A DNA stretch of 64,000 nucleotides. Source: Caldicellulosiruptor danielii (GTDB lineage Bacteria > Bacillota > Thermoanaerobacteria > Caldicellulosiruptorales > Caldicellulosiruptoraceae). Each line of letters opens with the position of its first letter. The first letter of the stretch is position 1. Positions 8,705-36,204 of the stretch are shown here, piece after piece. The stretch spans positions 581,001 through 645,000 of the forward strand of contig NZ_CP139957.1 in NCBI RefSeq assembly GCF_034343125.1. Direction: 5' to 3'. The translations under genes were made by a program, and so were the position numbers. The notes beneath the pieces are model-generated. The model was not told where the DNA came from and did no database searches. It saw only the letters and a program-made list of their open reading frames with translations.

Positions 8705-8742
8705 AAAAACCCCGCCTCTTTCAAAAGTTTTAATATATTTTC

Positions 8743-8772
8743 ATTATAAAGGCAGCGTTTTACTCAACTCAA
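8743..8772 (-). promoter_or_regulatory. Candidate promoter of the LysM gene
   Basis: Minus strand: TTGAGT (8772-8767), an 18-nt spacer, TATAAT (8748-8743). The start point would be about 30 nt before ATG 8704. Confidence 0.5.
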
Positions 8773-8834
8773 ATGAAATGCTTTCCAAAATGACTGAGTG
8801 TCGTAAATAACTTGTTAGCTGGCTATAAGTTTTG

Positions 8835-8843
8835 TGGTATACT
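8835..8843 (+). promoter_or_regulatory. Candidate extended -10 element of the MNT/HEPN pair
   Basis: TG-n-TATACT lies about 30 nt upstream of the MNT gene. A TTGTTA at 8812-8817 is 20 nt away, too far for an ideal -35. Confidence 0.4.
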
Positions 8844-8875
8844 AATAATTGAAGAAATAATAGGAGATGATTGCA

Positions 8876-9581: not shown

Positions 9582-9604
9582 TTTGTAAAAAATCTATTGC
9601 CAAA

Positions 9605-10075
9605 TTAAGATTCAGAAATATTTTTCATCAAATTTGCCATCTCCAGGGCAGAGAGGGCTGCGTCAAACCCTTTGTTTCCTGCTTTTGTACCTGCTCTTTC
9701 GATTGCCTGGTCAACTGTGTCGCATGTCAGAACACCAAATATAACTGGAACTTCTTGTTCTAAAGAGACGTTTGCAATGCCTTTTGATACTTCTGCGCTT
9801 ACATACTCAAAATGTGGTGTACTGCCGCGAATTACTGCACCAAGTGCAATTATTGCATTGTACTTTTTTGACTTTGCAAGCTTTTTAGCAACAAGTGGTA
9901 TTTCAAAAGCACCTGGTACATAATATACATCGATATTTTCACTGTCAACATCATGCCGAGAAAGACCATCTATGCATCCTTTTAAAAGCTCATCTGTAAT
10001 AAATGAGTTAAATCTTGAGATGACAATTGCAAATTTTAAATCTTTTCCGTAAAAGCTACCTTCAAAAATTTTCAA
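9605..10075 (-). CDS. ribH: 6,7-dimethyl-8-ribityllumazine synthase
   Basis: Condenses the pyrimidine intermediate with 3,4-dihydroxybutanone-4-phosphate to lumazine, the penultimate step of riboflavin synthesis; assembles as pentamers or 60-mers. The 156-aa length is typical. Motifs are [45 protein letters not shown] (active-site loop with catalytic His) and FGVLTCDT. Last gene of the rib operon, overlapping ribBA by 14 nt. It converges on the HEPN gene with only 23 nt between stops. Confidence 0.96.
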
Positions 10076-11854: not shown

Positions 11855-12962
11855 AGGTTATATCTCCTTCAATAATAGTAGAGTTTTTAAATGTTGTAAC
11901 TTTTGTATTTGCAAGCTTTGGGAAAAACTGTTCAAAGCCTTCTGCACCAACTACATCTTTTGTGTTCTGTCCGCCTATGAAAACATTGAATATCAACGAA
12001 TACCAGTAATCTGCAATTCTTTGCTTCAAAAGAGAAAAATTAAGAAAGCTTCCTCCCTCAACAAGGACTGATACTATCTTTTGCTGTGCAAGTTTTGAAA
12101 ATGCATCTAAAAGGTCAAGATGACCATCTTCTGATGACTTTGCAAAGATAATTTTTATTCCTTTTTGATAAAGAAGTTCTATTTTTCGGGCATTATTAAC
12201 ATTTTCACTGCACACAATATAGGTAGAATACTTGTCAGAGGTTTTTACGATATTGCACTCTAAAGGAATTCGAAGCTTTGAATCAAGTACAACTCTTGTA
12301 GGCTGCCTTACAATCTGGCCATACCTTGTATTTAAAGTTGGGTTATCAGAAATTACAGTATTTACAGACACCAAAGTAGCCATATATTTCTGACGAAGGC
12401 TGTGTACAAAGATATTTTCCTCTTCAGTGTTAAACATAAACCTTTCACCTGAAGGTTTTGCAATTTTGCCGTCAATACTCTGGGCAACTTTTATAGCAAT
12501 ATAAGGAATACCTGTCTTCATATATTTAAAAAATTCTTTGTTTACACTTTCTGCTTCTTTTTCTAAAATACCCTCTACAATTTCAATTCCGTGCTGTTTT
12601 AGAATTTGTATGCCCTTGCCATTAACAAGAGGATTTGGGTCTTTAGTGGCAATCACAACTTTTTTAATGCCACTTTTTATAATTGCATCCGTGCAAGGTG
12701 GCTGTTTACCAAAATGACAGCAGGGCTCTAAGGAGACATACATTGTTGAGTTTTTGAGGCTATAACCATTTTTTGTTGCATCCTCGATTGCCAAAACTTC
12801 TGCATGCTTTTCACCGTACTTTTGATGATACCCTTTTCCAATTATTGTTCCATTTTTTACAATTACACAGCCAACTCTTGGATTTGGCAGCACCAAAGGG
12901 GAAGCTTCTTTTGCCAGCTCAAGTGCTATGTTCATGTAGTAGCTATGTGAAAGAGTCCTCAA
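11847..12962 (-). CDS. ribD: Bifunctional riboflavin deaminase/reductase RibD
   Basis: Deaminates and reduces the pyrimidine intermediate. The deaminase domain holds the zinc site HAEVLAIEDA and EPCCHFGKQPPCTDAI (HxE...PCxxxxxxxxC). The reductase domain includes IAIKVAQSIDGKIA and LVEGGSFLN. TTG 12962 is chosen (371 aa) because AAAGGAGG is 6 nt upstream; in-frame extension further upstream would translate through the terminator and the riboswitch. First gene of the operon. Confidence 0.92.
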   Translation of the reverse strand: MRTLSHSYYMNIALELAKEASPLVLPNPRVGCVIVKNGTIIGKGYHQKYGEKHAEVLAIEDATKNGYSLKNSTMYVSLEPCCHFGKQPPCTDAIIKSGIKKVVIATKDPNPLVNGKGIQILKQHGIEIVEGILEKEAESVNKEFFKYMKTGIPYIAIKVAQSIDGKIAKPSGERFMFNTEEENIFVHSLRQKYMATLVSVNTVISDNPTLNTRYGQIVRQPTRVVLDSKLRIPLECNIVKTSDKYSTYIVCSENVNNARKIELLYQKGIKIIFAKSSEDGHLDLLDAFSKLAQQKIVSVLVEGGSFLNFSLLKQRIADYWYSLIFNVFIGGQNTKDVVGAEGFEQFFPKLANTKVTTFKNSTIIEGDITYV

Positions 12963-12995
12963 ATGTTTCCTCCTTTCTACGGTATAATTTGATAG

Positions 12996-13039
12996 ACAAA
13001 AAACTAAAGCCTCGAAAGTGGATTTTCCACCTTCGAGGC
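12996..13039 (-). terminator. FMN-controlled attenuator terminator
   Basis: Minus strand: GCCTCGAAGGTGGA (13039 downward) pairs with TCCACTTTCGAGGC, followed by a T-rich run reading towards 12996. It lies between the FMN aptamer and ribD, the expected place for ligand-dependent termination when FMN is abundant. Confidence 0.85.
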
Positions 13040-13085
13040 TTGAAAGCTTGAGTTTTATGATGTATAAGAAAATCTTCCTTACACA

Positions 13086-13213
13086 TCCACTCCTTCTCCC
13101 ATCCGGACTGTAACCGTTGGCACCGGAATTCCACCGGTTCTGCAAAAGCCAGGAAGGCTTTTGCTCGCGGGCTTTTACCGCCAGTGGGGAATTTCACCCC
13201 GCCCCGAAGGATG
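13086..13213 (-). ncRNA. FMN riboswitch (RFN element)
   Basis: The minus strand shows the conserved RFN blocks in order: CTTCGGGGCGGGGTGAAATT, CCCCACTGGCGGTAAAAGCC, CGCGAGC, a variable hairpin (AAAAGCC...GGCTTTT), then CCGGTGCCAACGGTTACAGT and CCGGATGGGAGAAGGAG. Position, orientation and downstream rib genes agree with an FMN-sensing OFF switch acting by termination. Confidence 0.97.
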
Positions 13214-13250
13214 GACCTTGAACAGAGATTTATATTCAATTTTACATTTC

Positions 13251-13279
13251 ATTATATTCGTAAATTTACGAAATTTCAA
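13251..13279 (-). promoter_or_regulatory. Promoter of the riboflavin operon
   Basis: Minus strand: TTGAAA (13279-13274), a 17-nt spacer and TATAAT (13256-13251), a near-consensus sigma-A promoter. The start point near 13244 is about 30 nt before the aptamer. Confidence 0.75.
13257..13272. promoter_or_regulatory. Perfect 16-bp palindrome in the rib promoter spacer
   Basis: TTCGTAAATTTACGAA is perfectly self-complementary and fills almost all of the 17-nt spacer between the -35 and -10 boxes. This is a position where a bound dimer would block RNA polymerase. The cognate protein is unknown. Confidence 0.55.
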
Positions 13280-13288
13280 TAGCAAAAT

Positions 13289-13651
13289 TTACCTTATCCA
13301 AACTTTGTAGACTACAGCAAGGCTTAAGACCAATAATGGAACGCCAAAATATATTATCTCAAATTTCTTGCTTGTAATTCCTACGATCAAAAACACAATA
13401 ATACTCAAAATTATACCAAAAGCTAAAAATAGCCCTAAAAATTTTTTAAAATTTTTCGCAGACTTTGTTCCAAAAACAAAGGGGAAAAGAATAAACACTA
13501 CAATTAAAATCAAAAATACACCGAGAACAATTGTTCCAACTATATAAAAAGCATTTTTTTCAAGAATTGAACTAATTACAGAGCCAATAGTAGCTAATAT
13601 AACAAACATGTAAAAGAAAATCCTATAAATTCTCAACAATTTTTCATTCAT
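13289..13651 (-). CDS. Small four-helix membrane protein, unknown
   Basis: A 120-aa hydrophobic protein with about four predicted membrane helices (residues 8-28, 33-60, 72-92 and 98-116), a basic loop (TKSAKNFKKF) between helices 2 and 3, and no motif I recognise. ATG 13651 follows GGAGG by 11 nt. It is 28 nt downstream of the glycine-rich repeat gene and likely co-transcribed with it and the DUF4176 gene. Small polytopic proteins often serve as immunity proteins next to secreted toxins, which is only a contextual guess here. Confidence 0.65.
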   Translation of the reverse strand: MNEKLLRIYRIFFYMFVILATIGSVISSILEKNAFYIVGTIVLGVFLILIVVFILFPFVFGTKSAKNFKKFLGLFLAFGIILSIIVFLIVGITSKKFEIIYFGVPLLVLSLAVVYKVWIR

Positions 13652-13678
13652 TTTACAGTTTTCCTCCAAAGAACTTTA

Positions 13679-14200
13679 TTACCATCTAATATTTATGAAA
13701 ACTCCAGCACCTACTTTAGCAGCAAGCCCACCACCTATTGATATTCCGCTTGATGAAAAATTACATTTAACTTCTGCTCCCCACGCACCAGCATAACCTT
13801 TTCCACCAACTTCGACAGTAATGCCACCAATACTAAACCCAAAACTTTGTTTAATTTCAATAGCAGACACCATAGCTTTTCCACCAATATTAATACCTTT
13901 TGAAAATGAAGCTGTTCCTCCAATTTCAGCTTTTCCAAAACTGATATTGGTATTTGAATTGAAAAATCCAACGCTTCCATAGGCAGAAAGTTCGGCAGCT
14001 TTTAATGAGACACCTGCTTGAGCAGATTTTGAATTTAAGGCAAGAGTATTTGGCTTGTTAATTTCAGCTTTTCCAATATTAATAGATGCCTCTCCATAAG
14101 CTGTAATTTGTCCTTGTTTATTAGTTCCAAAACTTGAGGTGCCAATAGAAAACAAAGAATTTTTATTTGAAGAACCACAGTAGGCTTGAACTGCATACAC
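13679..14200 (-). CDS. Glycine-rich beta-repeat protein, resembles C-terminal part of a T7SS-type effector
   Basis: A 173-aa protein with no signal peptide. It is made of short beta-strand-like repeats (ITAYGEASINIGKAEI; LSAYGSVGFFNSNTNISFGKA) and ends in AAKVGAGVFINIRW. This alternation of 'A-G-x-a-s-f-G' units is familiar to me from the C-terminal regions of large LXG-like or phage-tail-like proteins of Firmicutes, but that is recollection. GTG 14200 follows AAGGGG by 9 nt. It has 13 nt to the DUF4176 gene upstream. It may be the remnant of a larger protein or a stand-alone module. Confidence 0.55.
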   Translation of the reverse strand: MYAVQAYCGSSNKNSLFSIGTSSFGTNKQGQITAYGEASINIGKAEINKPNTLALNSKSAQAGVSLKAAELSAYGSVGFFNSNTNISFGKAEIGGTASFSKGINIGGKAMVSAIEIKQSFGFSIGGITVEVGGKGYAGAWGAEVKCNFSSSGISIGGGLAAKVGAGVFINIRW

Positions 14201-14213
14201 TTTTTATCACCCC

Positions 14214-14465
14214 TTATTTTAGCATTTTTCTCATTTCAAATTCAAGTTCATTCTCGTACCCTTTGAATAGTACTTTATCAATATCTTCCTTGTTGAAGAA
14301 AATATTATAATCAGCCGAAAGGTTTCCCTCAGGATAAAAACAAGCAACATAATCAAATTCATGACCCGTTCGTGAATTGAACTGTTTTCGACCATAAATC
14401 ATTAATGGTTTATTTCCACCTTTTAGAACGACTACACTTCCAATTGGAAGCCATTCGCTTTCCAT
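14214..14465 (-). CDS. DUF4176-family small protein
   Basis: An 83-aa protein matching the DUF4176 pattern as I recall it: WLPIGSVVVLKGGNKPLMIYGRK, then FDYVACFYPEGNLS, then YNIFFNKEDIDKVLFKGYENE. DUF4176 proteins usually sit in type VII (ESX/Yuk) secretion loci beside LXG or WXG proteins. ATG 14465 follows GGAGGTGA. No EssC-type ATPase, EsxA or LXG gene is present in this window, so the module is detached from any secretion apparatus visible here. Confidence 0.72.
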   Translation of the reverse strand: MESEWLPIGSVVVLKGGNKPLMIYGRKQFNSRTGHEFDYVACFYPEGNLSADYNIFFNKEDIDKVLFKGYENELEFEMRKMLK

Positions 14466-14632
14466 CTTAATCACCTCCATAACCTTTATTTCCATTTTAT
14501 CAAAAAAAAGAAACGTCAATGGATGTTTTTGTAATATATAGTTAAAAATTAAAATACCCTAACTTGCTATTTTTAAAAATTTTGTTGATAAACCAACTAC
14601 CAATGTGATAAAGTATATAACAAAGAGAAATC

Positions 14633-14644
14633 GAAATCGGTTAC
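14633..14644 (+). promoter_or_regulatory. Possible LacI-type operator upstream of the regulator gene
   Basis: GAAATC-GGTTAC is an imperfect inverted repeat (4 of 6 positions) about 55 nt upstream of the lacI-type gene. LacI-family operators commonly centre on a CG step flanked by such half-sites. Autoregulation is plausible but unproven. Confidence 0.3.
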
Positions 14645-14698
14645 AATATCTGATGTTTATAAAGATGAGAAAACAAAGAGAATTAGGAGGTGAAATTT

Positions 14699-15685
14699 TT
14701 GCCGTCGATTGAAGATGTTGCAAAAAGGGCTGGCGTGTCAAAAGCCACAGTTTCAAGGGTTTTGAACAACAGTGCAAATGTATCAGAAAAAAAGAGAAAG
14801 GCTGTGCTTGATGCAATAAAGGCTTTGAACTATACTCCAAACGTCACTGCAAAGAACTTGGCAAAGAGAAAGACTGAAACTGTTGGGATTATAATCCAGT
14901 CGCTGAGCGGTTGGTTTTACGGTGTGGTAGTTGACCTTCTTAACAATTACATATCAAAACGAGGATATGGTGCAATATTTTGCCAAATTTCAGACAATAT
15001 AGACTATTTTAGATTTCTTGTCGGCAGGGTTGACGGAATAATTGTGTTCGGATATAAAACCATTAACAGAGAGTCACTGAGGCTTTTAAAGGCTAACAAT
15101 GTGCCAGTAGTACTTGCAGAGAATAACACTGAATATTCAGATGTGCCGCGGATAAATGTAAACAACTTTCAAGGTGGATACATGGCAACAAAGTACTTAA
15201 TAGACAAAGGTTGTAAAAAGATTGCTCATATTTTAGGTCCGTCAGATTCTTTTGAAAGCCTTGCAAGGTTTGAGGGCTATAAAGCGGCCCTGAGTGATGC
15301 TGGAATTGAATTTGATGAAAGACTTTGCATTGAGGGAGATTTTATGTTTCAAAAGGCATATGAGAATATCAAAAAGCTTGTCCAAACACAACAGATTGAT
15401 GGCATATTTGCAGCAAATGATGTAATGGCGTATGCAAGCATATATGCTTTAAATGAGATGGACATTAAGGTTCCTCAGCAAGTCAAAGTGGTTGGTTTTG
15501 ACGATGTAGATATATTTGGGTTGAGACTTAGCAAGATGCCAAAGCTCACAACAGTTCGTCAACCAATTGATTTGATGGTCAAAACTGCCTGTGATATTCT
15601 TTTTGACAAAATAAATAACCCTGAGAAAAAATTTGAAAGCGAGTATGTATTGGATACTCAGCTGGTTGTGAGAGAGTCTGCTTAA
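14699..15685 (+). CDS. LacI-family transcriptional regulator
   Basis: A 328-aa repressor. The N-terminal helix-turn-helix plus hinge reads SIEDVAKRAGVSKATVSRVLNN...LNYTPNVTAKNLA. The rest is the periplasmic-binding-like sensor domain (ETVGIIIQSLSG at its start; GFDDVDIFG near the end). TTG 14699 fits AGGAGG (14685-14690) with an 8-nt spacer and gives the canonical LacI N terminus; GTG 14690 would overlap the site. It lies 34 nt before xylulokinase, so it probably controls a pentose or oligosaccharide regulon including that gene. The effector is unknown. Confidence 0.92.
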   Translation: MPSIEDVAKRAGVSKATVSRVLNNSANVSEKKRKAVLDAIKALNYTPNVTAKNLAKRKTETVGIIIQSLSGWFYGVVVDLLNNYISKRGYGAIFCQISDNIDYFRFLVGRVDGIIVFGYKTINRESLRLLKANNVPVVLAENNTEYSDVPRINVNNFQGGYMATKYLIDKGCKKIAHILGPSDSFESLARFEGYKAALSDAGIEFDERLCIEGDFMFQKAYENIKKLVQTQQIDGIFAANDVMAYASIYALNEMDIKVPQQVKVVGFDDVDIFGLRLSKMPKLTTVRQPIDLMVKTACDILFDKINNPEKKFESEYVLDTQLVVRESA

Positions 15686-23426: not shown

Positions 23427-23713
<287 letters not shown>

Positions 23714-23757
23714 ATAATCAAAAAAATATACAATCAAAAAGAAAAGGGGGTACCAGC

Positions 23758-25710
23758 ATGGAACTTTCTAAGTTACAGACATCAAGAAATCCTTTAAAAG
23801 TGAACAACCAGTCCAGTTCATCAAACCAAAGTCAAGACACTTTCCATGGACAATCTTACAGCACAAGTGTTTTTGATTCATCAAAGAAAAAAGAAAGAAG
23901 AGATGAGCTAAAGAAAAACACAATAATCGAAAGGTTGGCTACAGCCTCATCCGAGACGCAGGCAGCCGTTTCACAGGCAACACGAAATATCAACGAGCTT
24001 CAGGTTGCAGTGCAAGAAATAGCAGCATCGGCTCAGGAAGCATCTAAAGCTGCAAATGAATCTCTAAAAGCTATTCAGGAGATTGAAAAGGTTGCGAAGG
24101 TTGCAGATGAAAGAACAGGTGAGCTTTCGAATTCCATCGCAAACCTTCAGACTCTTATCCAAAATATTGCAGACGAGATTGAAGAGATGATTCGGGGAAT
24201 TGAATTTGCAGCTCAGACCTCTATAGAGTCTGCTGAAAATGTTTTGCAGCTTGAAAGGCAAGCAAATGAAATTAGAACCACTGCTCAGGCTGTAATGGAA
24301 GTTGCTGACCAGACAAATCTATTGGCACTCAATGCTGCCATTGAGGCTGCAAGGGCTGGCAAACATGGTCGTGGATTTGCAGTTGTAGCGGATGAGGTAA
24401 GAAGCTTGGCGGAGACAACAAATAAGGCAGCTATTGAGATTCAGAACATCATAGAAGACATTCAAAGAGATGTAAATGTTGTTGCAGAGGACATAAGAAG
24501 TGTTGGGACACTTGTCAGAGGAGAGGCTGAAAAGGCAAAAGGTGTTACAGAAAATTTGAAGAAAATAGAGGATGCAATCCTTACCATTGTTGAAGCTATG
24601 AAAGAGATAAGGGTTTTGTCAAGAAATATGATGAACGCATCGAGCGAGGTCAGGGGCGGAAGTCAGCAGATTGCAGCAGCTGCTGAAGAAGCTGCAGCGG
24701 CAACTGAAGAGTCAAATGCGTCGTTGATTGAACAGACAAAGGCATTGAATGAAATTAACAATGCAATAACAATGCTTGCTGAGATGGCAGATGAGCTAAG
24801 ATCTACAAGCATTACTCAAAAGAATGCAGAAGAGCTTGCGGCAGCATCGGCTGAGCTTGCAGCTATGGTCGAAGAGTCACACAAAGCAAGCTATCAGATT
24901 TCTTCAGCACTTGAGCAGATAATGCAGGCAGCAGAAGAACAGGCTGCTGCGTGTGAGGAGTCTCAAAAAGCAACTGAGAATCTTAAAAATATGCAAAGGG
25001 ACATCGTTGAGAGGTTGGAAAATACTACAAGATTGGCAAGAGAGCTTCAAGAGATTTTGGAAAATAATAGAAAAGACGTGGAAGGTTTGATTGATGGTGT
25101 TGCACAGTCGGTTGAAAAGAACAGACAGTCATTGGAAAGCGTGAGAGTACTTGAGAAAAGAATTAGAAACATTGAGAAGATAATTGATACAATTTCAAAT
25201 GTGACGACAAAAGTGGACCTACTATCGCTCAATGGTTCAATTGAAGCGGCACGTTCTGGCAAGTATGGAAAAGGATTTGCGGTTGTTGCAGGTGATATAA
25301 AACAGCTTGCTCAGCAATCAAGTGAAGCAATAGGAAATATAAAAGAAATGGTAAGAAATATAAGCGACCAAGTTAGAGTTGTATATGAAGATGTTGAAAA
25401 TGCTGTTAAGACTTCAGCGCAAGAAAATGAAAAAGCGCAAAAGATAACCGTTTCGCTTGAAAGGGTAAAGCTTGCAGCAGAAAAAGTTGGGAAAGAGGGT
25501 GAGCAGCTTCTTAAGATGGCCCAGGATGCAGAAGCAGCTCTGACTCAGATTGCAGCAGGGACTATGCAGATAGCAAAAGGAGCAGAAGAATCATCACAAG
25601 CAGCACAAAGTGCGGCAACCCAGGCACAAGAGCAGTTAAAAGCGATATCACAGATTGCTCAAGCAACTCAAGAGCTTGCTGATCTCGCAGAAGAACTGAA
25701 AAACATTTAA
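23758..25710 (+). CDS. Soluble methyl-accepting chemotaxis protein with two signalling tips
   Basis: A 650-aa protein with no membrane helix and almost entirely coiled coil after residue 55. It has two receptor hairpin tips: residues 182-220 ([20 protein letters not shown] then [16 protein letters not shown]) and residues 482-520 ([20 protein letters not shown] then [16 protein letters not shown]), exactly 300 residues apart. Tip 1 is canonical; tip 2 has substitutions (N to D, A to G). Ala/Glu-rich stretches at 305-330 and 390-405 could hold methylation sites. No PAS, globin or cache sensor is seen; residues 1-55 are Ser/Gln-rich and disordered. ATG 23758 follows AAAGGGGG. It probably forms a cytosolic array with the following CheW and CheA. 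Confidence 0.93.
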
Positions 25711-26323: not shown

Positions 26324-27355
26324 ATGGTCAGAGTTTTGGTGGTAGAAGATTCTCCTCTCATGAGAAGGGTTTTGACAAAAATGCTCCAAAAAAGTCCTTT
26401 TATAAAAGTTATAGACTATGCGACAAATGGGCAGGAGGCAATCGAAAAGGTTGCCTCCCTGCGCCCAGATGTTGTCACTATGGATGTTGAAATGCCTGTG
26501 TTAAATGGTCTTGAGGCTCTGAAAGCAATAATGCGGACATGTCCAACGCCTGTTGTTATGATATCAACACTTACCCAAAGAGGTGCTGAGATCACACTTA
26601 AAGCTTTGAGTCTTGGTGCAGTGGATTTTATTCCAAAGCCTTCTGCTTATTCAAGTGAGCTTGAGTGCATAGAAAATGAGATTATCCACAAAGTTTTAAA
26701 TGCGGCAAAGGCAAATATTTTTGTTAAAAAAGCTGATTCTTCAATTAAGCATGTAACAGCGAAACTATCAAAAAGACCATTGGTAAGACCCAATGCAATA
26801 TTTATAGGTGTTTCAACAGGTGGGCCCAAAACATTGGGTGAGATTATTCCATATATTAAAAGTGATATAGGTGTACCAGTATTTATTGTTCAGCATATGC
26901 CACCGAATTTTACACGGCAGCTTGCTTTAACACTTTCAGAAAGAAGCTCTCTTTTAATCAAAGAGGCAGAAAAAGGTGAGATTGTAAAACCCAATACAGT
27001 ATACATTGCACCTGGCGGCAAACAAATGGAGATTACAATATCTTCTGCTAAAGCTGTTATTAACATTGTAGATGGGCCAGCAGACTTGATTTACAAACCA
27101 TCTGTTGATTATGTTGGGTTTTCGCTTGCTCAGTACTATAAAGACAGGCTTGTTGCTATAATGCTTACAGGGATGGGAACTGACGGTGCAAAAGCCTTTG
27201 CCTTTATCAAAAAGCTTGGTGGTTTTATAATAGCTGAGGACCAATCAACAGCAGTCATATTTGGTATGCCCAAAGCTGTGATTGATCAGGGTATTGCAGA
27301 TTTAATATTGCCTTGTACAAGCATTGCAGGGACTATAAATTCTATATTCTCATAA
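26324..27355 (+). CDS. cheB: Chemotaxis glutamate methylesterase CheB
   Basis: Removes receptor methyl groups and deamidates glutamines. The receiver domain has Asp54 (VTMDVEMPVLNG). The methylesterase domain has Ser164 (FIGVSTGGPKTL), His191 (IVQHMPPNF) and Asp287 (LTGMGTDGAK), so the triad is complete. The 343-aa length is normal. It starts 33 nt after cheW. No cheC, cheD or cheV lies in the cluster, so adaptation appears to rely on CheB/CheR. Confidence 0.95.
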   Translation: MVRVLVVEDSPLMRRVLTKMLQKSPFIKVIDYATNGQEAIEKVASLRPDVVTMDVEMPVLNGLEALKAIMRTCPTPVVMISTLTQRGAEITLKALSLGAVDFIPKPSAYSSELECIENEIIHKVLNAAKANIFVKKADSSIKHVTAKLSKRPLVRPNAIFIGVSTGGPKTLGEIIPYIKSDIGVPVFIVQHMPPNFTRQLALTLSERSSLLIKEAEKGEIVKPNTVYIAPGGKQMEITISSAKAVINIVDGPADLIYKPSVDYVGFSLAQYYKDRLVAIMLTGMGTDGAKAFAFIKKLGGFIIAEDQSTAVIFGMPKAVIDQGIADLILPCTSIAGTINSIFS

Positions 27356-27388: not shown

Positions 27389-29035
27389 ATGAACTGCGAA
27401 GAGAAAAAATTTTTAATAGGGCTTTTGGATGAAGGAAAAAAGATATACAAGATTGAATTTTTACTAAAACCTGAGGCAGAGTTTAAGTCTCCTTCAATGA
27501 CAAAGATATATAAAAGTCTGAGTGGAAAATATAATGTATTTTTAACAATTCCAGACATAGAGCAAGAACATATTAGTGAAGAGATAAGTGAGTATCTGTT
27601 CTTTGTAGAAGGAGACATTAATATAAATGCCTTGCGAGAAGACATAGAACAAACGTGTAAGAATGAAGATATAGTTGAGATTTTCTTTATACAAAAACTG
27701 TTAAAAGAAGACTTAGAAATTACTGAGGTTACAGAGGCTAATGAAAATACATCTCAGCAAGAAAATAATAAGAATCGTAACTCCAATGGTCAGGTCAGGG
27801 ATTTTGTGAGAGAAAGTGAACATGATAGTAAAAAATTTGATTCGGTGCGAGTTGATATAAACAAATTAAATAACCTTACAAACCTTGCAGGAGAACTTAT
27901 TACCTGTAAATCTCAATTAAATCAAATACTCAACGCATTTAAAGAAACAAATATAAGAGATAAACAGCTAAGCAGCTTAATTTCAAACCTTGAAAAAGGA
28001 ATTTTAAGACTTGAAAGAATTTCGTTTGAACTTCAGGAAGGCATAACAAGTTTAAGACTGCTACCAATTAAAAACGTATTCAGAAAACTTCCACGAATTG
28101 TTCGTGAGGTTGCACAAAAAGAGGGAAAAGAGGTTGAACTTATCATAAAAGGTGAGGAGACAGAGATAGACAAGATTATACTTGAAAAGATAACCGATCC
28201 ACTGGTGCACTTGGTGAGAAATTGTGTAAATCATGGAATTGAAAAGCTAGAGGAAAGAATAGCCAAGGGTAAAAGACCTCAGGGAAGGATTGTGATAGAG
28301 GCATATGCAGAAGGCGAGAATATCTATATAAATGTTGCAGATGATGGCAAAGGAATTGACACAGATAGAATAAAAGAAAAGGCTTTGCTAAAAGGCATAG
28401 TGACACAGGACCAGCTTGAGAGAATGTCAAGAGATGAAATAATTGAGCTTATTTTCTTACCAGGCTTTTCTACGGCGGATAAAGTGGATGACGTATCAGG
28501 TAGAGGAGTTGGCATGGACGTTGTGAAAAAGAACCTAAGTGAGCTCAAAGGAGAAATAAAAGTTAAAACAGAAAAGGATAAAGGTACAAGCTTTTTGATG
28601 GTAATTCCTCTTACTGTTGCGATAATAAAGACATTGTTGGTTTTAGCTTCGGATAAATTATATCTACTTCCACTTGAAAAGGTAGTTGAGACAGTAAAGA
28701 TAAATAAAGAGTCGATAAAGTCTATAACAGGTAAAAAGGTTTGTAACATCAAGGGTGAGATAATACCATTCTTCAATCTTCAGGAAATAGTTGGCTATCA
28801 AGAAGCTGAAGATAAAAGAAATTACTATTTTGGAATAATAGTGAAATATGAGGGGAGTAAGGTAGGGATAATAGTAGACAGACTCTTAGGGGAATATGAT
28901 GTCGTTGTGAAGCCTTTGGACCAGTTTGTTGGGAATATAAAAGGTATAATTGGCTCAACAATTTTTGGTGATGGCAAGGTTGTGCTCCTGCTTGAGCCTG
29001 AGCAATTGATTGAAAGAATTGTTCAAAAAGTTTAA
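27389..29035 (+). CDS. cheA: CheA-type histidine kinase lacking the P1 (Hpt) domain
   Basis: A 548-aa kinase. Residues 1-110 look like a P2-type or linker domain (KKIYKIEFLLKPEAEFKS...), with no HxxKG phosphotransfer motif anywhere in the protein. An acidic/Asn-rich linker (110-150) leads to P3 dimerisation (152-240, VRVDINKLNNLTNLAGEL), the P4 ATPase (N box DPLVHLVRNCVNHGIE at 270-285, G1 ADDGKGID, G2 SGRGVGMDVVKKNL) and P5 (about 410-548, CheW-like). Full-length CheA is usually 650-750 aa. The start at 27389 follows GGCAGGG with an ordinary leader and no Hpt remnant in the 33-nt gap upstream, so this is not a mis-called start. The missing Hpt is at 31815. Confidence 0.92.
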   Translation: MNCEEKKFLIGLLDEGKKIYKIEFLLKPEAEFKSPSMTKIYKSLSGKYNVFLTIPDIEQEHISEEISEYLFFVEGDININALREDIEQTCKNEDIVEIFFIQKLLKEDLEITEVTEANENTSQQENNKNRNSNGQVRDFVRESEHDSKKFDSVRVDINKLNNLTNLAGELITCKSQLNQILNAFKETNIRDKQLSSLISNLEKGILRLERISFELQEGITSLRLLPIKNVFRKLPRIVREVAQKEGKEVELIIKGEETEIDKIILEKITDPLVHLVRNCVNHGIEKLEERIAKGKRPQGRIVIEAYAEGENIYINVADDGKGIDTDRIKEKALLKGIVTQDQLERMSRDEIIELIFLPGFSTADKVDDVSGRGVGMDVVKKNLSELKGEIKVKTEKDKGTSFLMVIPLTVAIIKTLLVLASDKLYLLPLEKVVETVKINKESIKSITGKKVCNIKGEIIPFFNLQEIVGYQEAEDKRNYYFGIIVKYEGSKVGIIVDRLLGEYDVVVKPLDQFVGNIKGIIGSTIFGDGKVVLLLEPEQLIERIVQKV

Positions 29036-29063
29036 TTAATCGAGAAGGAGTGAAGCACAAAGT

Positions 29064-30542
29064 ATGAATTCTGCTAAGGAACTAATTGAGATGCTAAATT
29101 CGAATGATTACGTTGTTCAAAAAGAGGCAATAGAAAATGCATCAAAGTTTAATGAACCTGAGGTTATTGACAGATTGATTGAGCTTTTTATAAACACAAA
29201 CAACAGGATGATTGAAGAACACATTACAGAAGCCTTGAAACAAATGGGCGGGAGTTATACTGTAGAGAAGTTGTTAAAGCTATTAAATCATGAAGAGGCA
29301 AGAGTGAGGGTTTTTGCTTTTGAGGTTTTGTGTAAGATAGGAAATGAGAATATACAAGCTATCATTCAAGAGGCAGAAAATCCTGATAAGAATGTCAGAA
29401 AATTTATAGTTGATATTCTGGGAGCTTTAAAGGATAAGCAAGGAGTCGATGTTTTACTAAAAAGGCTATCAGATGATGATGTAAACGTGATTCAGGGAGC
29501 TGTAGAGGCACTTGGAAACATTGGAAATGTTGATGCCCTCAAGAAGGTAGTAGAGTTTTTACCGTCTGCTCATCTTTGGGTGCAATGGACAATAATTGAA
29601 AGCATAAAAAAGGTAAATAACAAAGAGTTAATTTCAGAGGTTTTGAATCTGCCGTGGGAGATTGAGGATATCATTTTTGATAGTATTTTTGAGATGGTAA
29701 AGGAAAATGGTGATCTCGAGAATGTAAATGATACGATAAATCTATATCTAAAACTTTCAACGCAACTGAGAATAAAGGTTTTGGATACCATATATTCGAT
29801 ATATATAAGGTCTGACAAACAAAAACTTGAAGATATTCTTGCAAATAGCAAACTTTTTGATGAAATAAAATGCATTTTGATATATGGTTCTGATGAACAG
29901 AAGTATACGATTTTTAAATATATGGGCAGCATAGAAGATAAAGACTTTGTAAGCTTTATAAAGAGCAGGATATTTGATGAGACAATTATTTTGAGCGCTA
30001 TAAAACTTTATTATACCACCAACACTTTAGGGAAAAGAGAGTTGGTGAGTGTGTTTAAGTATTTTAACAAGTCAAAGTTGGTTGAGTATATAAGAGAAAT
30101 ATTCATGGGTGATGATGATATCTTAAAACTCAGCGGTTTGAAAATTATGAGATCAAATGGTATTAAGGAGGCAGCAGATGTGTTGCCTGAGATGATAAAA
30201 GAAGGGGAATTGTTGCCTGAAGTATTAAAAACTGTGATTGAACTTGACTTGAAAGAGTTATTTGACAAGATTTATGAAGAGTACTTCAACGTCAAAAGCA
30301 ATAATGCAAAACTTTTAATGCTTGAGTGTATGGCTGAACTAAAACCAGATGATTCAAGGGTTGTGGCGCTTATTAAAGACGAGCTTGCGAATGAGTTATT
30401 ATCTGATAGTCACATTCTAAAACTTTTACAGTTGATACGGAAAATTGATGGCAAAGAAGTATTTAAAGCACAGCTGGAATGGTTGGTTGACCATCCCAAC
30501 ATGGAAATTTCTATCGAAGCACAGGACTTGCTTGAAAGCTAA
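29064..30542 (+). CDS. HEAT-repeat protein of the chemotaxis operon
   Basis: A 492-aa all-helical protein. The first 190 residues contain regular HEAT/PBS-lyase-like repeats (VEKLLKLLNHEEARVRVFAFEVL; VDVLLKRLSDDDVNVIQGAVEALGNIG); later repeats are degenerate. No catalytic motif. Sits between cheA and cheR, with a 28-nt gap after cheA and 11 nt before cheR, so it is part of the operon. HEAT scaffolds bind other proteins; a role in assembling the split kinase or linking it to an output machine is inference. Confidence 0.88.
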   Translation: MNSAKELIEMLNSNDYVVQKEAIENASKFNEPEVIDRLIELFINTNNRMIEEHITEALKQMGGSYTVEKLLKLLNHEEARVRVFAFEVLCKIGNENIQAIIQEAENPDKNVRKFIVDILGALKDKQGVDVLLKRLSDDDVNVIQGAVEALGNIGNVDALKKVVEFLPSAHLWVQWTIIESIKKVNNKELISEVLNLPWEIEDIIFDSIFEMVKENGDLENVNDTINLYLKLSTQLRIKVLDTIYSIYIRSDKQKLEDILANSKLFDEIKCILIYGSDEQKYTIFKYMGSIEDKDFVSFIKSRIFDETIILSAIKLYYTTNTLGKRELVSVFKYFNKSKLVEYIREIFMGDDDILKLSGLKIMRSNGIKEAADVLPEMIKEGELLPEVLKTVIELDLKELFDKIYEEYFNVKSNNAKLLMLECMAELKPDDSRVVALIKDELANELLSDSHILKLLQLIRKIDGKEVFKAQLEWLVDHPNMEISIEAQDLLES

Positions 30543-30553
30543 GGAGGAGCAAA

Positions 30554-31399
30554 ATGCTTACAGAGATTATTCTGAATAATCAAGAGTGGTATGTTATAAG
30601 AGACTTTATATACAAGTCAACTGGTCTATACTTTTCGGATGATAAGAAAAGTTATATCCAGAAAAGATTAAAGATAGCAATGGATAATTTGCAAATAGCT
30701 AATTTTTGGGAATATTTAAAAAGAATTGAAACTGACAAAAGTGCTCTCAACAAATTGTTAGAGTTAATCACAACAAATGAAACTTACTTTTTCAGAGATA
30801 TTCCACAACTTGATATGTTTTCTAAAGATGTTTTACCTGAGCTTTTGATCAGGAAAGCAAACAAGGGTGATTTTAGACTAAAAATATGGAGTGCAGGATG
30901 TTCAACTGGAGAAGAGGCATACACAATTGCCATTATTCTAAAAGAAAGACTTGAGTACTTTGATGACTGGAACATTGAGATACTTGGAACTGATATCTCA
31001 GAGAGAGTACTAAAGTTTGCACAAGAAGCTGTGTACATACCACGGTCTTTAAAAGACGTGCCGGAGTACATAAAACTTAAATATTTTGAGTACAACCCTG
31101 CAGATAAGATGTACAAACTAAAAGATGAGATAAAGAGGCTGGTGGTATTTAGGTACTTGAATTTATACGATGAAAGCAAGATGAAACTGATGAGAAATTA
31201 TGATGTGATATTTTGCAGGAATGTTCTGATTTACTTTGATGAAGAATCAAGAAGAAAGGTTGTGGAATACTTTTACGATGCGTTGAATCCTGGAGGTTAT
31301 ATCTTCTTGGGACACTCAGAAAGTATTCTGAGAATTACAAAGGCGTTTGAGATTGTTTATTTTGATAACAATATTGCGTTTAGAAAGCCTATAAATTAA
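30554..31399 (+). CDS. cheR: Chemotaxis methyltransferase CheR
   Basis: Methylates receptor glutamates using S-adenosylmethionine. The 281-aa protein has the N-terminal helical domain (residues 10-75), the SAM-binding motif IWSAGCSTGEEAYTIAI, acidic loop EILGTDISERVL, and IFCRNVLIYFDEESRRKVV. RBS AAGGAGG precedes ATG 30554. Between the HEAT gene and cheY. Confidence 0.95.
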   Translation: MLTEIILNNQEWYVIRDFIYKSTGLYFSDDKKSYIQKRLKIAMDNLQIANFWEYLKRIETDKSALNKLLELITTNETYFFRDIPQLDMFSKDVLPELLIRKANKGDFRLKIWSAGCSTGEEAYTIAIILKERLEYFDDWNIEILGTDISERVLKFAQEAVYIPRSLKDVPEYIKLKYFEYNPADKMYKLKDEIKRLVVFRYLNLYDESKMKLMRNYDVIFCRNVLIYFDEESRRKVVEYFYDALNPGGYIFLGHSESILRITKAFEIVYFDNNIAFRKPIN

Positions 31400-31425
31400 A
31401 AATTTAATGGAGGGTAAGAAAGGTT

Positions 31426-31797
31426 ATGCCAAAGATTTTAGTGGTTGATGATTCGCCTGTTGTAAAGAAAATTGTGACAACAACGCTTGTAAAAAAAGGA
31501 TTTGAAGTAAGAGAAGCATTGGATGGTGTTGCAGCATTGGAGATACTTTTGAACGAGAAGATTGACCTTGTTATTACAGACCTCAATATGCCAAAGATGG
31601 ATGGTCTGCAACTTACCAGAGAAATAAGGAAAAATCCAATGTACAAAAGAATACCTGTCATTATGCTAACAACGAATCCATCAGAAGAACAGAAAGCGTT
31701 GGAAGCAGGGGCAAATCTCTATTTGAAAAAACCTGTGACAAGTGAGGAATTGATTTCACATATTCAAAAATTTTTAGGTATTGAGATGAAAAGTTAA
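31426..31797 (+). CDS. cheY: CheY single-domain response regulator
   Basis: A 123-aa receiver. Asp8/Asp9, phospho-acceptor Asp52 (LVITDLNMPKMDG), Thr82/Thr83 and Lys102-Pro103 are all present, so it is phosphorylatable. RBS GGAGGG upstream. Directly followed, 17 nt later, by the Hpt-CheW fusion, the likely phosphoryl donor. Confidence 0.95.
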   Translation: MPKILVVDDSPVVKKIVTTTLVKKGFEVREALDGVAALEILLNEKIDLVITDLNMPKMDGLQLTREIRKNPMYKRIPVIMLTTNPSEEQKALEAGANLYLKKPVTSEELISHIQKFLGIEMKS

Positions 31798-31814
31798 TAA
31801 AGGGTGGGGTTGTA

Positions 31815-32810
31815 ATGACTGACCAGCTGTTCAGTGCTTCAGAACTTGAAGAACTAAAAAAAGAATTTGTTGTTGAAACATATGAGCATCTTGAGAATGC
31901 TCAAGATGCTCTTCTGCAACTTGAGAAAGATCCAGTCAACTACGAGACGCTAAATTTTATATTTCGTGAAATTCATTCAATAAAAGGTGGGGCAAACTTC
32001 TTAGGACTACAGGATATAATAAATGTTTCACATGAAATGGAGAGCTTATTGGATAAAATGAGAAACTATGAGCTATACCCTTCCAGTGAGGTAATAAGTG
32101 CTTTATTCGAGGGAATAGATATCATTCGTAAGTTAGCAGATGATATAGAGAACAATAAGCAAAGTGATATTGATTATTCCTCATATATAGAGCAATTAAA
32201 GAGGATAGGTAATTCAAACCAGTCATCAGATGTGACTATTCAACAAAGAATGATAGACGATGATGATTTTCAAACATTAAACGAATCTGAATTTGTGGAT
32301 AATCGAGAAGATAAAAAAGATGAATTTACAAACTTAAAAATAAATGAGGATGACCAAAACATTGATGAAGACGCTTATCAAATGGTTGTCTCATTTGAAT
32401 ATGGAGGAGTTACTTATGGAATTGAGGTGGAGTTAGTCAGAGAGATTGTAAAGGCCACAGATATATCACCAATACCTTTTGCACCTGAACATATAATGGG
32501 ACTTATGAACCTGCGAGGGGATGTTGTCACAATAGTTGATTTTGGGAAACTGCTGGGAGTTGAAAAAAGTGAGAGTTATAATCACAAAGTTCTAATAATC
32601 AGCAATGAGGAGTTGACATTTGGGCTGTACGTTGATAATGTAAGAGAAGTTGTGAGTGTGCTTCCAGAGGAAATAAAAGAGGCAAATGCAGCTTCAATTT
32701 CGTCAGGTGAGATTTTGAAAGGAGTAGTTGTAAAAGATGCAGAATTCATACAGATAATAGATATTGAAAAGTTAGTAGAGAGGTCAAAAAACAATATGGA
32801 GTTGATTTGA
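31815..32810 (+). CDS. Hpt (CheA P1-like) - CheW fusion protein
   Basis: A 331-aa two-domain protein. Residues 8-112 form an Hpt domain with the phospho-acceptor His54 in the motif IHSIKGGANFLGL (HxxKGxxxxxG). Residues 113-185 are an acidic, low-complexity linker (DDDDFQTLNE...). Residues 186-325 form a CheW domain (YQMVVSFEYGGVTYGIEVELVREIV; HIMGLMNLRGDVVTIVDFGKLLG). It has no kinase catalytic core. The operon's CheA has the kinase core but no P1, so this protein most simply supplies P1 in trans, held in the array by its CheW domain. GTG/TTG alternatives are absent; ATG 31815 follows GGGTGGGG. Confidence 0.92.
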   Translation: MTDQLFSASELEELKKEFVVETYEHLENAQDALLQLEKDPVNYETLNFIFREIHSIKGGANFLGLQDIINVSHEMESLLDKMRNYELYPSSEVISALFEGIDIIRKLADDIENNKQSDIDYSSYIEQLKRIGNSNQSSDVTIQQRMIDDDDFQTLNESEFVDNREDKKDEFTNLKINEDDQNIDEDAYQMVVSFEYGGVTYGIEVELVREIVKATDISPIPFAPEHIMGLMNLRGDVVTIVDFGKLLGVEKSESYNHKVLIISNEELTFGLYVDNVREVVSVLPEEIKEANAASISSGEILKGVVVKDAEFIQIIDIEKLVERSKNNMELI

Positions 32811-33806
32811 ATGAATTGGTATATATACATCATTTTTATTTTAATGCTGCTAATAATTTCTGAGATTTTATTACTCATAAAAAAGTCTATAGAAATTAAA
32901 AAAATAATGAAATTTTTAATTTCCGGAGAATTAACAAAGGGGATACCCCAAAAAATTGTTGATGCATATAGAAGTAGGCTTGACCTAATAGAAAAACACT
33001 TAAAGGATGAGATATCTAAGCTTAAGTCAGAAAACCAATACTTAAAGGGAGAAATAGTGAAAAGCAAAAGAACATCAGAAATTCAAATAAATGAATTGAC
33101 AGAACAGTTACGAACCATATTTGACTCAGTTAAGGAGCTTACAGAAGCATTTAAGATAGTGGTGGATGAGATAAATGAAGTCTTGGTGAAGAATTTGGAA
33201 GATATGACTCAACGGTCAAATAAAGTTGAAGATGATATAAGAAAAGGAATGGAACAAGTTTCTAAATCAGTTGAGGATATAAATATTCTTTTGAACCAAA
33301 TGCAAGAGTTATCAGAAGACGTTGTTAATCTTTCGACACATGTAGAGAATATGAGCAAAGTAATCCAGATTGTTAGCGATATTGTGAAGGAAATTTATTT
33401 CATTTCGTTGAATGCTCAGATTGAAGCTAATAAAGTGAGAGATTCTGTGGCATTCGGCTTATTGGCATCCGAGATGAGAAAACTTGCGGACAGTGGTAAA
33501 CAGAGCTTGAAAGAAGTTAACAAGACTATTTCAAATATTGTGGAAGATATATATACAAACAGTATCCGAATTGACACTTTTATTGACACTTTTGTAGATA
33601 AGGTGAAAGATTTAAAAAATAGAACCCATGAGATAACCGATAATTTTGACGCTGTTCAAAAGCTTATTAGTTCTGTGCAAAATTATCAAAATCAATTGTC
33701 TGAGCAGGTAAAACAACACTTTGCAGGTATTCAAGAAATAGTCGGGGTATTAGATAATATCTACAATAAAGGCGTTCAGATTCTGGAAAGAATATTGCAA
33801 AGATAA
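32811..33806 (+). CDS. Membrane-anchored degenerate MCP-like protein
   Basis: A 331-aa protein with one N-terminal helix (residues 4-24), no periplasmic domain, then a long coiled coil. The receptor tip (190-230) is recognisable but degenerate: KEIYFISLNAQIEANKVRDS then FGLLASEMRKLADSG, versus the consensus [18 protein letters not shown] and [13 protein letters not shown]. The start codon abuts the previous stop (32810/32811) with GGAG 9 nt upstream, so expression is coupled to the Hpt-CheW fusion. It may tether the otherwise soluble array to the membrane; this is inference. Confidence 0.85.
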   Translation: MNWYIYIIFILMLLIISEILLLIKKSIEIKKIMKFLISGELTKGIPQKIVDAYRSRLDLIEKHLKDEISKLKSENQYLKGEIVKSKRTSEIQINELTEQLRTIFDSVKELTEAFKIVVDEINEVLVKNLEDMTQRSNKVEDDIRKGMEQVSKSVEDINILLNQMQELSEDVVNLSTHVENMSKVIQIVSDIVKEIYFISLNAQIEANKVRDSVAFGLLASEMRKLADSGKQSLKEVNKTISNIVEDIYTNSIRIDTFIDTFVDKVKDLKNRTHEITDNFDAVQKLISSVQNYQNQLSEQVKQHFAGIQEIVGVLDNIYNKGVQILERILQR

Positions 33807-33842: not shown

Positions 33843-34286
33843 ATGAGAAAGGTGACCTTTCTTATTGTTGATGATTCTCCAATGTGGAGAAAGGTGATAA
33901 GAAAATTTATAAAAGAAAATCTTAAAGGGCTAATAGTGGCAGAGGCAAAGGATGGACTTGAGGCTGTAGAGTTTTATAAAAGATTTAGGCCTGATGTGGT
34001 TACAATGGATATAGAGATGCCAAAGCTGGATGGTTTAATGGCAATGGAAAAGATTTTGAAGTTTGATGAAAGTGCAAAAGTAATCATCATAAGTTCAAAA
34101 GGTGAGGAGGATGTAGTTAGAAGAGCTCTTTTAAAAGGAGCAAAAGATTTTATTGTGAAAGATTTTGAAATTGAAAAGTGGTCCAAAAGATTTGAAAAGG
34201 TTATAAAAGAAGTCGATACAAAAAATTTGAAAATAAGTATATTTGTTTATATAATAAACTACATCAACAGATTTAAAAGACGGTAA
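33843..34286 (+). CDS. Second stand-alone response regulator with basic tail
   Basis: A 147-aa receiver closest in style to CheB-type receivers (VVTMDIEMPKLDGLMAMEKIL). Asp pair (VDDSPMW) and phospho-acceptor Asp (MDIEMP) are present. The conserved Thr is Ser (IIISSKGEED), and Lys-Pro reads Lys-Asp (IVKDFE). A 30-residue extension (LKISIFVYIINYINRFKRR) is hydrophobic and basic, perhaps membrane-associating. It is 36 nt after the degenerate MCP gene and probably an alternative acceptor for the same Hpt. Confidence 0.85.
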   Translation: MRKVTFLIVDDSPMWRKVIRKFIKENLKGLIVAEAKDGLEAVEFYKRFRPDVVTMDIEMPKLDGLMAMEKILKFDESAKVIIISSKGEEDVVRRALLKGAKDFIVKDFEIEKWSKRFEKVIKEVDTKNLKISIFVYIINYINRFKRR

Positions 34287-34310
34287 GTGCTTTGCAGCGG
34301 GGGTATTTGT

Positions 34311-36163
34311 ATGATCTTTGAAAAGAAGAGTGATAAAAAGATAATAGAAAACAACAAGGTTTAATTTTTTGTTGAGAATCTTAAAGGTTATTTCGGTTAT
34401 ATAGATGAATATGTTGTATTGGTATGGGACGAGGAAGGAATAATCCTGGAATACAAGGAAAAAGGTGAGAATTTGTTAGGCTATTCTCCTGATCAAATAG
34501 AAGGAAAAATTGGTTAAATGCTTTAATTGATGACAAAGAAAGAGAAGAAATGGAATGGGTTTACAACAAATTAATAAGTGGCGAAGTGTTTAAATATTAT
34601 GTCAATCCTATTAGAGATGTGAATGGAGTAAAAAAGACATTCTTATGGTACAACTCTAAGATAGAATGTGTGCAGGACAATAAAAGGATTTTTCTTTCAA
34701 TAGGCTTTGGCTTAGATGCGATAGAAAAACTAAACAGAAAAATCCGCAGATATGAAAAAGATCTCGATAAAATGAGTACAGAAAGTGAGAATCTTAAGTT
34801 CAAAATTTCTAAACAGGATTTGATTTTGAAACAAAAAGATGAGATGATAAAAGATTATAAAACCAGAGTTGAGTTTTTAGCGTTTTATGATGAGCTTACT
34901 AAATTGCCAAACAAGAACTCACTTATGAGATGGTTAAATTTAAAAATTACTCAAGCAGATAATATGAAGACATATTTGATCTTTTTGGAAGTGAGAAATT
35001 TAGAAAAGTTAAATGTTATGTATGGATATGAGTTAATTGATGACCTGATTATCCACATAAGTAAGAGGATAGAAGAGATATTGGGTAAAGAAAATAAAAT
35101 ATTCAAGATAGGATCTGATAGATTTGCAATAATAGGCAAGACAGATAACGTATCTGAATTTATTGAAAATTTGTTAGAAAAGTTATTGGTGGCGTACAAC
35201 GTTAATGGAAATTTGATAAAAGTAGATTATAATATAGGAGCAACTGCAATAGAGAATATTAATGACTCTAATGTGAACGTTATAAGGAAATGTGATTTAG
35301 CTTTAATTAGAGCAAAAGAAAAGGGTTTGAATGAGTATGAGATATTTAAATCTTCTTTAGAGGTTCAAACATTAAAAGAAGGGATAATTGAAAGAGAACT
35401 TCGCAATGGACTGGAGTTAAATGAATTTACAGTTTTTTATCAACCAGTTGTCAATTTACAAACGGAAAAAATATGTGGATTTGAAGCGCTTTTAAGATGG
35501 CACTATCTTAAGTCTACATATATATCACCATTGAAATTTATACCAGTAGCAGAAAAATGTGGTTTGATCGTGGAACTTGGTAGTATTGTCTTACAACAAT
35601 CTATGAAAGTAGCTAAATTAGTGAAGAGATATTTTGATGATGATTTTATGATTTCAATAAATATCTCACCACGACAGTTTAACGACAGAGAATTTATCCG
35701 TTCAACAATTCAAATACTGGAAAATGAAAAATTGGAAAATCTCGAACTTCAATTTGAGATAACAGAAAAATTGGCAGTTGAAAATATTGACTATACAATT
35801 GAAGTGATAAATCAACTAAGAAAATACAACATAACATTTGCCTTAGATGATTTTGGTGTCGATTATTCTTCACTCAATTATCTGAGGAGATTACCAATAC
35901 AAGCTGTGAAGATTGATAAGTCCTTTATTCAAGATATAAAGAAGAATGAAGCATATTTTATAGTAGAAACGATAATAAAACTATGAAATAAATTGGGGTT
36001 AAAGGTTATGGCAGAAGGGGTGGAAACAGAGGAACACTACAGAGCTGTAAAAGAACTTGGATGTGACTATGTTCAAGGGTATTTTATAAGTAGGCCATTG
36101 GGTGTTGATGAACTTGTAAAATTTATTGAAAAATACAAATGTCGAAATGAAAGCGATTTTTAG
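34311..36163 (+). pseudogene. Broken PAS - GGDEF - EAL gene (three lesions)
   Basis: A c-di-GMP signalling gene at the end of the chemotaxis operon. ATG 34311 follows GGGGG. Lesion 1: in-frame TAA at 34362-34364 where homology would continue (KV*FFVENLKGYFGY). Lesion 2: a one-base loss near 34503-34507 in an A-run; restoring one A joins IEGKNWLNALIDDKERE to the long frame starting at 34550. Lesion 3: in-frame TGA at 35984-35986 in the EAL domain, after which GLKVMAEGVETEEHYRAV...YVQGYFISRP continues in the same frame to TAG 36163. The PAS is at 34370-34720, GGDEF degenerate (GSDRF), and EAL has EALLRWH and LDDFGVDYSS. The middle 478 codons remain open and might still be translated. Confidence 0.88.
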
Positions 36164-36164
36164 A

Positions 36165-36204
36165 AGGCACCAATGTGGTAAAATAAATGTAGGTGCCTTT
36201 TTTG
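36165..36204 (+). terminator. Terminator of the chemotaxis operon
   Basis: AGGCACC (36165-36171) pairs with GGTGCCT (36192-36198) and is followed by seven Ts. The loop contains TGTGGTAAAAT, which resembles the extended -10 used elsewhere in the window and might be a promoter for the next gene. Confidence 0.8.

What the first reader, a model, noticed from the sequence alone, without database searches (positions are those of the whole stretch)
27389..32810. Split chemotaxis kinase: CheA without P1, and the missing Hpt fused to a CheW domain
The only CheA in the operon has P2-like/P3/P4/P5 regions but no HxxKG phosphotransfer motif. Four genes downstream, a 331-aa protein carries an intact Hpt (His54, HSIKGGANF) joined by an acidic linker to a CheW domain. 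The simplest reading is that CheA phosphorylates the Hpt in trans, with the CheW domain holding it in the receptor array, and CheY (31426) or the second receiver (33843) takes the phosphoryl group. Trans-phosphorylation between CheA parts is known in Rhodobacter (CheA3/CheA4), but a P1-CheW fusion paired with a P1-less CheA in a Firmicute operon is, to my knowledge, not described.
Basis: partly seen in the sequence, partly recalled or inferred. Interest (0 to 1): 0.88.

Follow-up and report, generated by a model that had tools for sequence, protein, structure and literature searches.

The report
Bipartite CheA with separate Hpt-CheW partner
A chemotaxis-like operon of a Caldicellulosiruptor-type bacterium splits the central kinase CheA in two, with the kinase on one protein and the phosphate-accepting histidine on another that also carries a CheW domain; the arrangement is real and rare, but both halves were already noted in this genus in 2010 and a similar split kinase is well studied in Rhodobacter.

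Summary
CheA (27389-29035) has P3, P4 and P5 and no Hpt. Its N-terminal 110 residues form a ferredoxin-like alpha/beta domain, probably P2. The 331-aa protein at 31815-32810 has an intact Hpt (His54, Lys57, Gly58) followed by a CheW domain. The genome has exactly two CheA kinase cores and two Hpt domains: a complete CheA elsewhere, and this split pair. Across 12 genomes of the genus the Hpt-less CheA occurs in six, always with Hpt-CheW. A seventh has an orphan Hpt-CheW, where a transposase gene has replaced the middle of the operon. Every other CheA in the genus has its own Hpt. Phosphorylation of Hpt-CheW in trans by CheA is therefore the best reading; it is inferred, not shown. The novelty claim fails: Hamer et al. 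2010 listed a P1-P5 protein in C. saccharolyticus and Anaerocellum thermophilum and a P3-P4-P5 CheA in C. saccharolyticus, and Berry et al. 2023 described bipartite CheA generally. Added here: the one-to-one accounting, evidence that the partner's C-terminal domain is CheW-type rather than P5-type, and a second, different split in Thermoanaerobacter-like relatives, where CheA keeps a dead Hpt (His to Asn/Ser) beside a separate Hpt-P2 protein.

The parts
23704..25710 (+). Soluble MCP with two tandem signalling modules, the probable cytoplasmic receptor of the array
   Evidence: Pfam MCPsignal 5.8e-58, three stretches, residues 161-307 the best; no membrane segment seen by eye; orthologues in L036, L037, L038, L040 and L041
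25736..26290 (+). CheW adaptor
   Evidence: Pfam CheW 2.6e-41
26324..27355 (+). CheB (receiver plus methylesterase)
   Evidence: Pfam CheB_methylest 2.1e-55 and Response_reg 5.9e-24
27389..29035 (+). Hpt-less CheA: N-terminal P2-like ferredoxin fold (about 27437-27712), P3 (27842-28051), P4 (28196-28615), P5/CheW (28634-29017)
   Evidence: Pfam; N-terminus vs P2 profile hhalign probability 79%, vs P1 1.5%; AlphaFold order beta-alpha-beta-beta-alpha-beta, pLDDT 80; T. maritima CheA P3-P5 about 1e-90
29064..30542 (+). HEAT-repeat protein of the operon
   Evidence: Pfam HEAT_2 2.9e-27; a shorter HEAT protein sits in the related operons L044-L046
30554..31399 (+). CheR methyltransferase
   Evidence: Pfam CheR 9.9e-61
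31426..31797 (+). CheY, candidate phosphoryl acceptor
   Evidence: Pfam Response_reg 7.8e-31
31815..32810 (+). Hpt-CheW protein: Hpt (residues 13-95, His54 codon at 31974-31976), acidic variable linker (about 126-187), CheW domain (191-323)
   Evidence: Pfam Hpt 2.1e-12, CheW 1.7e-29; orthologues in 7 of 12 genus genomes; dN/dS 0.14-0.18 between intact operons; confident five-helix Hpt in AlphaFold, CheW part not modelled
32811..33806 (+). Small membrane-anchored MCP-like protein with a divergent signalling tip
   Evidence: Pfam MCPsignal 4.2e-13; one N-terminal hydrophobic stretch by eye
33843..34286 (+). Second single-domain receiver (CheB/Spo0A-like), alternative acceptor
   Evidence: Pfam Response_reg 1.7e-27; NCBIfam CheB model 2e-28 over its receiver part

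Best explanation
This is a bipartite CheA. The Hpt-less CheA dimerises through P3, joins the receptor array through P5 and uses P4 to phosphorylate His54 of the Hpt-CheW protein in trans. The CheW domain of that protein places the phosphodonor inside the same array as an extra adaptor. From His54 the phosphoryl group goes to CheY (31426), the receiver at 33843 or the CheB receiver; the P2-like domain kept on CheA may dock them. Shown: the domains, conserved catalytic and phosphoacceptor residues, operon linkage, purifying selection and 1:1 occurrence. Inferred: trans-phosphorylation, array tethering, choice of acceptor and output (type IV pili or c-di-GMP-linked behaviour are guesses).
For: No Hpt in CheA by Pfam or unfiltered profile search, and its N-terminus is alpha/beta, not helical. 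Hpt-CheW has a canonical Hpt. Across 12 genus genomes every CheA core except this one has its own Hpt, and the count of CheA cores equals the count of Hpt domains in 11 of 12: 2/2 in G000; 4/4 in G010, G003, G007, G009; 3/3 in G008; 2/2 in the five lacking the operon. The exception, G002 (3/4), is an operon in which a transposase-like gene stands where most of the first MCP through CheY should be. Hpt 84.9% and CheW 77.3% mean identity, linker 44.2%. P4 boxes align to T. maritima CheA. R. sphaeroides CheA3/CheA4 does this chemistry (PMC3591291).
Against: No biochemistry. A complete CheA exists elsewhere in the genome and could in principle phosphorylate His54. In one distant genome (G151, L068) a 299-aa Hpt-CheW protein sits next to a CheA with its own intact Hpt, so the fusion does not always serve as the missing P1. 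The interface between CheA P4 and this Hpt was not modelled.
Confidence: 0.85

Rival explanations
1. Cross-talk: the Hpt-less CheA is mainly structural and His54 is phosphorylated by the complete CheA encoded elsewhere, linking the two pathways.
For: A complete CheA is encoded in the same genome.
Against: The P4 ATP-binding boxes of the Hpt-less CheA are intact and align with T. maritima CheA. CheA is the more constrained half (dN/dS 0.06-0.15). The five genomes that lack the operon keep complete CheAs and lack Hpt-CheW.
Confidence: 0.07
2. Hpt-CheW is an accessory adaptor or phosphate sink (CheV-like in logic) that drains phosphoryl groups back from CheY rather than being the primary phosphoacceptor.
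For: In G151 an Hpt-CheW protein coexists with a complete CheA. Hpt domains can run phosphotransfer backwards (general knowledge).
Against: Here the only other Hpt in the genome is on the other CheA, so without His54 the operon kinase would have no evident substrate.
Confidence: 0.06
3. The operon is decaying and the split is a by-product of degeneration.
For: The GGDEF-EAL gene downstream looks disrupted in the window, and G002 has lost the middle of the operon.
Against: CheA and Hpt-CheW are intact and under purifying selection in all six complete operons.
Confidence: 0.02

Closest known systems
Rhodobacter (Cereibacter) sphaeroides CheA3/CheA4 split kinase
   Same: Kinase half with P3-P4-P5 and no P1, a separate P1 protein that also ends in a CheW-family domain, both in one che operon, cytoplasmic receptors (PMC10782961, PMC3591291)
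   Different: CheA3 has a 794-residue middle region with degenerate P2/P3/P4 and CheY6 phosphatase activity; here the linker is about 62 residues without a domain. The C-terminal domain groups with CheW rather than P5. The kinase half keeps a P2-like domain, whereas CheA4 has only P3-P5.
Caldicellulosiruptor saccharolyticus / Anaerocellum thermophilum non-classical CheA proteins (Hamer et al. 2010, PMC2829493)
   Different: The 2010 paper lists the two proteins separately, does not say they share an operon and calls them rare. Operon pairing and 1:1 accounting are added here.
Bipartite CheA with Hpt as a separate gene in the operon (Berry et al. 2023, PMC10782961)
   Same: Same general kind
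   Different: In the parts read, that survey does not describe an Hpt partner carrying CheW in Firmicutes.
Thermoanaerobacter-like operon with Hpt-P2 protein (L044, L045, L046)
   Same: Soluble double MCP, CheB, HEAT, CheR, CheY, CheA without a working Hpt, separate Hpt protein
   Different: CheA keeps a His-less Hpt relic and the partner is Hpt-P2, not Hpt-CheW. Hamer et al. list T. tengcongensis among P3-P4-P5 CheAs.

Membership tests
Bipartite (split) CheA | Kinase half with P3, P4 and P5 but no Hpt | tested here: met
   Pfam and unfiltered P1 profile
Bipartite (split) CheA | Separate Hpt protein with intact phosphoacceptor His encoded in the same operon | tested here: met
   Pfam Hpt 2.1e-12, HSIKG invariant in 7 orthologues, same strand with gaps of 0-36 nt between genes
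Bipartite (split) CheA | The two halves occur together across genomes | tested here: met
   6 of 6 genomes with the Hpt-less CheA have Hpt-CheW; the one orphan Hpt-CheW lies in a disrupted operon
Bipartite (split) CheA | Phosphorylation of the Hpt in trans by the kinase half | not testable with these tools
   needs purified proteins
R. sphaeroides CheA3/CheA4 type proper | Long middle region in the P1 protein with degenerate P2/P3/P4 and phosphatase activity | tested here: not met
   About 62-residue low-conservation linker, no domain
R. sphaeroides CheA3/CheA4 type proper | C-terminal domain of the P1 protein is a CheA P5 | tested here: inconclusive
   Domain tree places it among free CheW, not P5, with support 0.78
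Canonical five-domain CheA | Hpt (P1) on the same polypeptide as the kinase | tested here: not met
P2/CheY-binding domain (CheA N-terminus) | P2 sequence profile and ferredoxin-like fold | tested here: inconclusive
   hhalign 79% over 55 columns; beta-alpha-beta-beta-alpha-beta model, but the 50 best Foldseek hits are mostly generic ferredoxin-like folds with no CheA P2 among them

The most novel reading that the evidence does not exclude
CheA was split at least twice independently within this bacterial class, by different routes: P1 lost outright and replaced by an Hpt fused to an adaptor (Caldicellulosiruptor), and P1 kept as a dead His-less relic with a separate Hpt-P2 donor (Thermoanaerobacter-like). 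The adaptor-fused form would set the ratio of phosphodonor to kinase in the array independently of kinase number.
Probability: 0.5. Interest if true: 0.45.

Novelty: new member of a known kind. Interest (0 to 1): 0.32.

Why it matters
A compact, thermostable split CheA with a short linker, lacking the degenerate kinase remnant of CheA3, would be a cleaner system than R. sphaeroides for asking what splitting a chemotaxis kinase buys: ultrasensitivity, tunable donor-to-kinase ratio, or insulation between two CheA pathways in one cell. The dead-Hpt relatives suggest that splits arise repeatedly. The general arrangement is already in the literature, so the interest is that of a good model system rather than a discovery.

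Tried and rejected
Hidden P1 in the CheA N-terminus: rejected. Frame-split or assembly artefact, as apparently seen in two other cheA genes of relatives (L049, L050): rejected, because six genus genomes have the same intact open frames and other genes lie between the halves. A common origin of the two kinds of split: not supported; the kinase tree does not join the groups, but deep support is weak (40-73). Structure model of full Hpt-CheW: only the Hpt is confident, because the alignment of 7 close rows is too shallow for the CheW part, so it was not searched. The genome-contig scan with the Hpt-CheW alignment returned one locus, a CheW-only match in a Nitrospiraceae MAG, so named orthologues were not obtained.

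Full report
What is there. The window lies in a 2.82-Mb genome of the Caldicellulosiruptor type (identification from the contig lengths of close relatives, from memory). One strand carries, with gaps of 0-36 nt: soluble MCP, CheW, CheB, CheA, HEAT protein, CheR, CheY, Hpt-CheW, small membrane MCP-like protein, receiver (Pfam). CheA matches P3, P4 and P5 but no Hpt. The 331-aa protein matches Hpt and CheW. Both assignments are far above chance.

Is P1 really missing? A P1 profile built from relatives and run with all filters off finds nothing in CheA (best -3.0 bits). The first 112 residues match P1 at 1.5% probability and P2 at 79% (hhalign). AlphaFold gives a beta-alpha-beta-beta-alpha-beta domain at pLDDT 80. 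P2 is a ferredoxin-like domain by general knowledge, and the Foldseek matches are mostly ferredoxin-like, but no CheA P2 is among the best 50. So 'P2-like' is likely, and 'not an Hpt' is firm.

Is the Hpt competent? It matches T. maritima CheA P1 structures (1tqg, 1.4e-19; 2ld6, 9e-21). His54, Lys57, Gly58, His73 and Glu76 are invariant in seven orthologues. The model is a confident five-helix bundle.

Accounting. The own genome has two CheA cores and two Hpt domains. The other CheA is complete and lies about 1.7 Mb away, in a gene cluster that looks flagellar (by eye; not annotated here). Over 12 genomes of the genus, all CheAs of 637-705 aa and of 608-612 aa have their own Hpt, and only the class with open frames of 547-573 aa lacks it. 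That class occurs in six genomes, each with one Hpt-CheW. In G002 Hpt-CheW remains without its CheA; there a 442-aa transposase-like gene stands between a truncated MCP and Hpt-CheW, and CheW to CheY are gone, a natural disruption of the operon.

Selection. Hpt-CheW has dN/dS of 0.14-0.18 between intact operons and CheA 0.06-0.15; Hpt and CheW are conserved and the linker is not. The orphan in G002 against G009 gives 0.30, based on few changes, so relaxation cannot be claimed.

Relatives. The fused Hpt-CheW is confined to this genus among 37 genomes of the class. In a 399-genome sample of the phylum the only other protein matched across both domains at its full length is a 299-aa one in G151, next to a CheA that has its own Hpt. 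Three Thermoanaerobacter-like genomes have a related operon in which CheA is about 800 aa and a separate 317-aa Hpt-P2 protein follows. Their CheA N-terminus aligns over a whole P1 profile (E 3e-6 to 1e-7 for a single search) with the phosphoacceptor His replaced by Asn or Ser and the KG lost: a dead Hpt. The CheW domain of Hpt-CheW groups with free CheW rather than P5 (support 0.78), and its Hpt groups with P1s of CheAs from other soluble-MCP systems (0.81). The kinase tree does not unite the two kinds of split, with weak deep support.

Mechanism. The pair most likely works as CheA3/CheA4 of R. sphaeroides does: CheA P4 phosphorylates the Hpt in trans while both are held in the array, and receivers take the group. 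In R. sphaeroides neither half autophosphorylates alone and both bind the cluster by P5 (PMC3591291). The output is unknown. The genome has PilB- and PilT-type ATPases, so type IV pili are a candidate target, by inference only.

Prior art. Hamer et al. 2010 (PMC2829493) list the P1-P5 architecture with a shorter linker in Caldicellulosiruptor saccharolyticus and Anaerocellum thermophilum, and the P3-P4-P5 architecture in C. saccharolyticus and Thermoanaerobacter tengcongensis. Wuichet and Zhulin 2010, as cited in PMC3591291, count 11 split against 470 complete CheAs. Berry et al. 2023 (PMC10782961) describe bipartite CheA. Subscription papers could not be searched.

Noticed in passing
34290-36165: The GGDEF-EAL gene downstream (ORF 34550-35986, 478 aa) appears disrupted: relatives have 612-641 aa, and the homologous ends on both sides are cut off by stops or frame changes in the window.
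   Followed up: partly
L044:6268-8721, L045:10600-12987, L046:5774-8239: CheA proteins of about 800 aa with a His-less Hpt relic and no working Hpt, followed by a separate 317-aa Hpt-P2 protein.
   Followed up: yes
L039:10379-14266 (G002): A 442-aa transposase-like gene stands where most of the first MCP, CheW, CheB, CheA, HEAT, CheR and CheY should be, leaving an orphan Hpt-CheW.
   Followed up: partly
L068:9371-10270 and 11934-14963 (G151): An independent-looking Hpt-CheW protein next to a CheA that keeps its own Hpt, with very similar Hpt sequences, suggesting duplication.
   Followed up: partly
L047 (G015), 5146-11144: A related operon with MCP, triple CheW, CheB and CheR but no CheA or CheY in place.
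   Followed up: no
32811-33806: Small membrane-anchored MCP-like protein with a divergent signalling tip (ISLNAQIEANKVRDSVAFG), immediately after Hpt-CheW; its role in the array is unclear.
   Followed up: no
L069, L070, L072: Five genus genomes (not the window's) carry a further system with a soluble MCP, a triple-CheW protein and a 608-612-aa CheA that has its own Hpt.
   Followed up: partly
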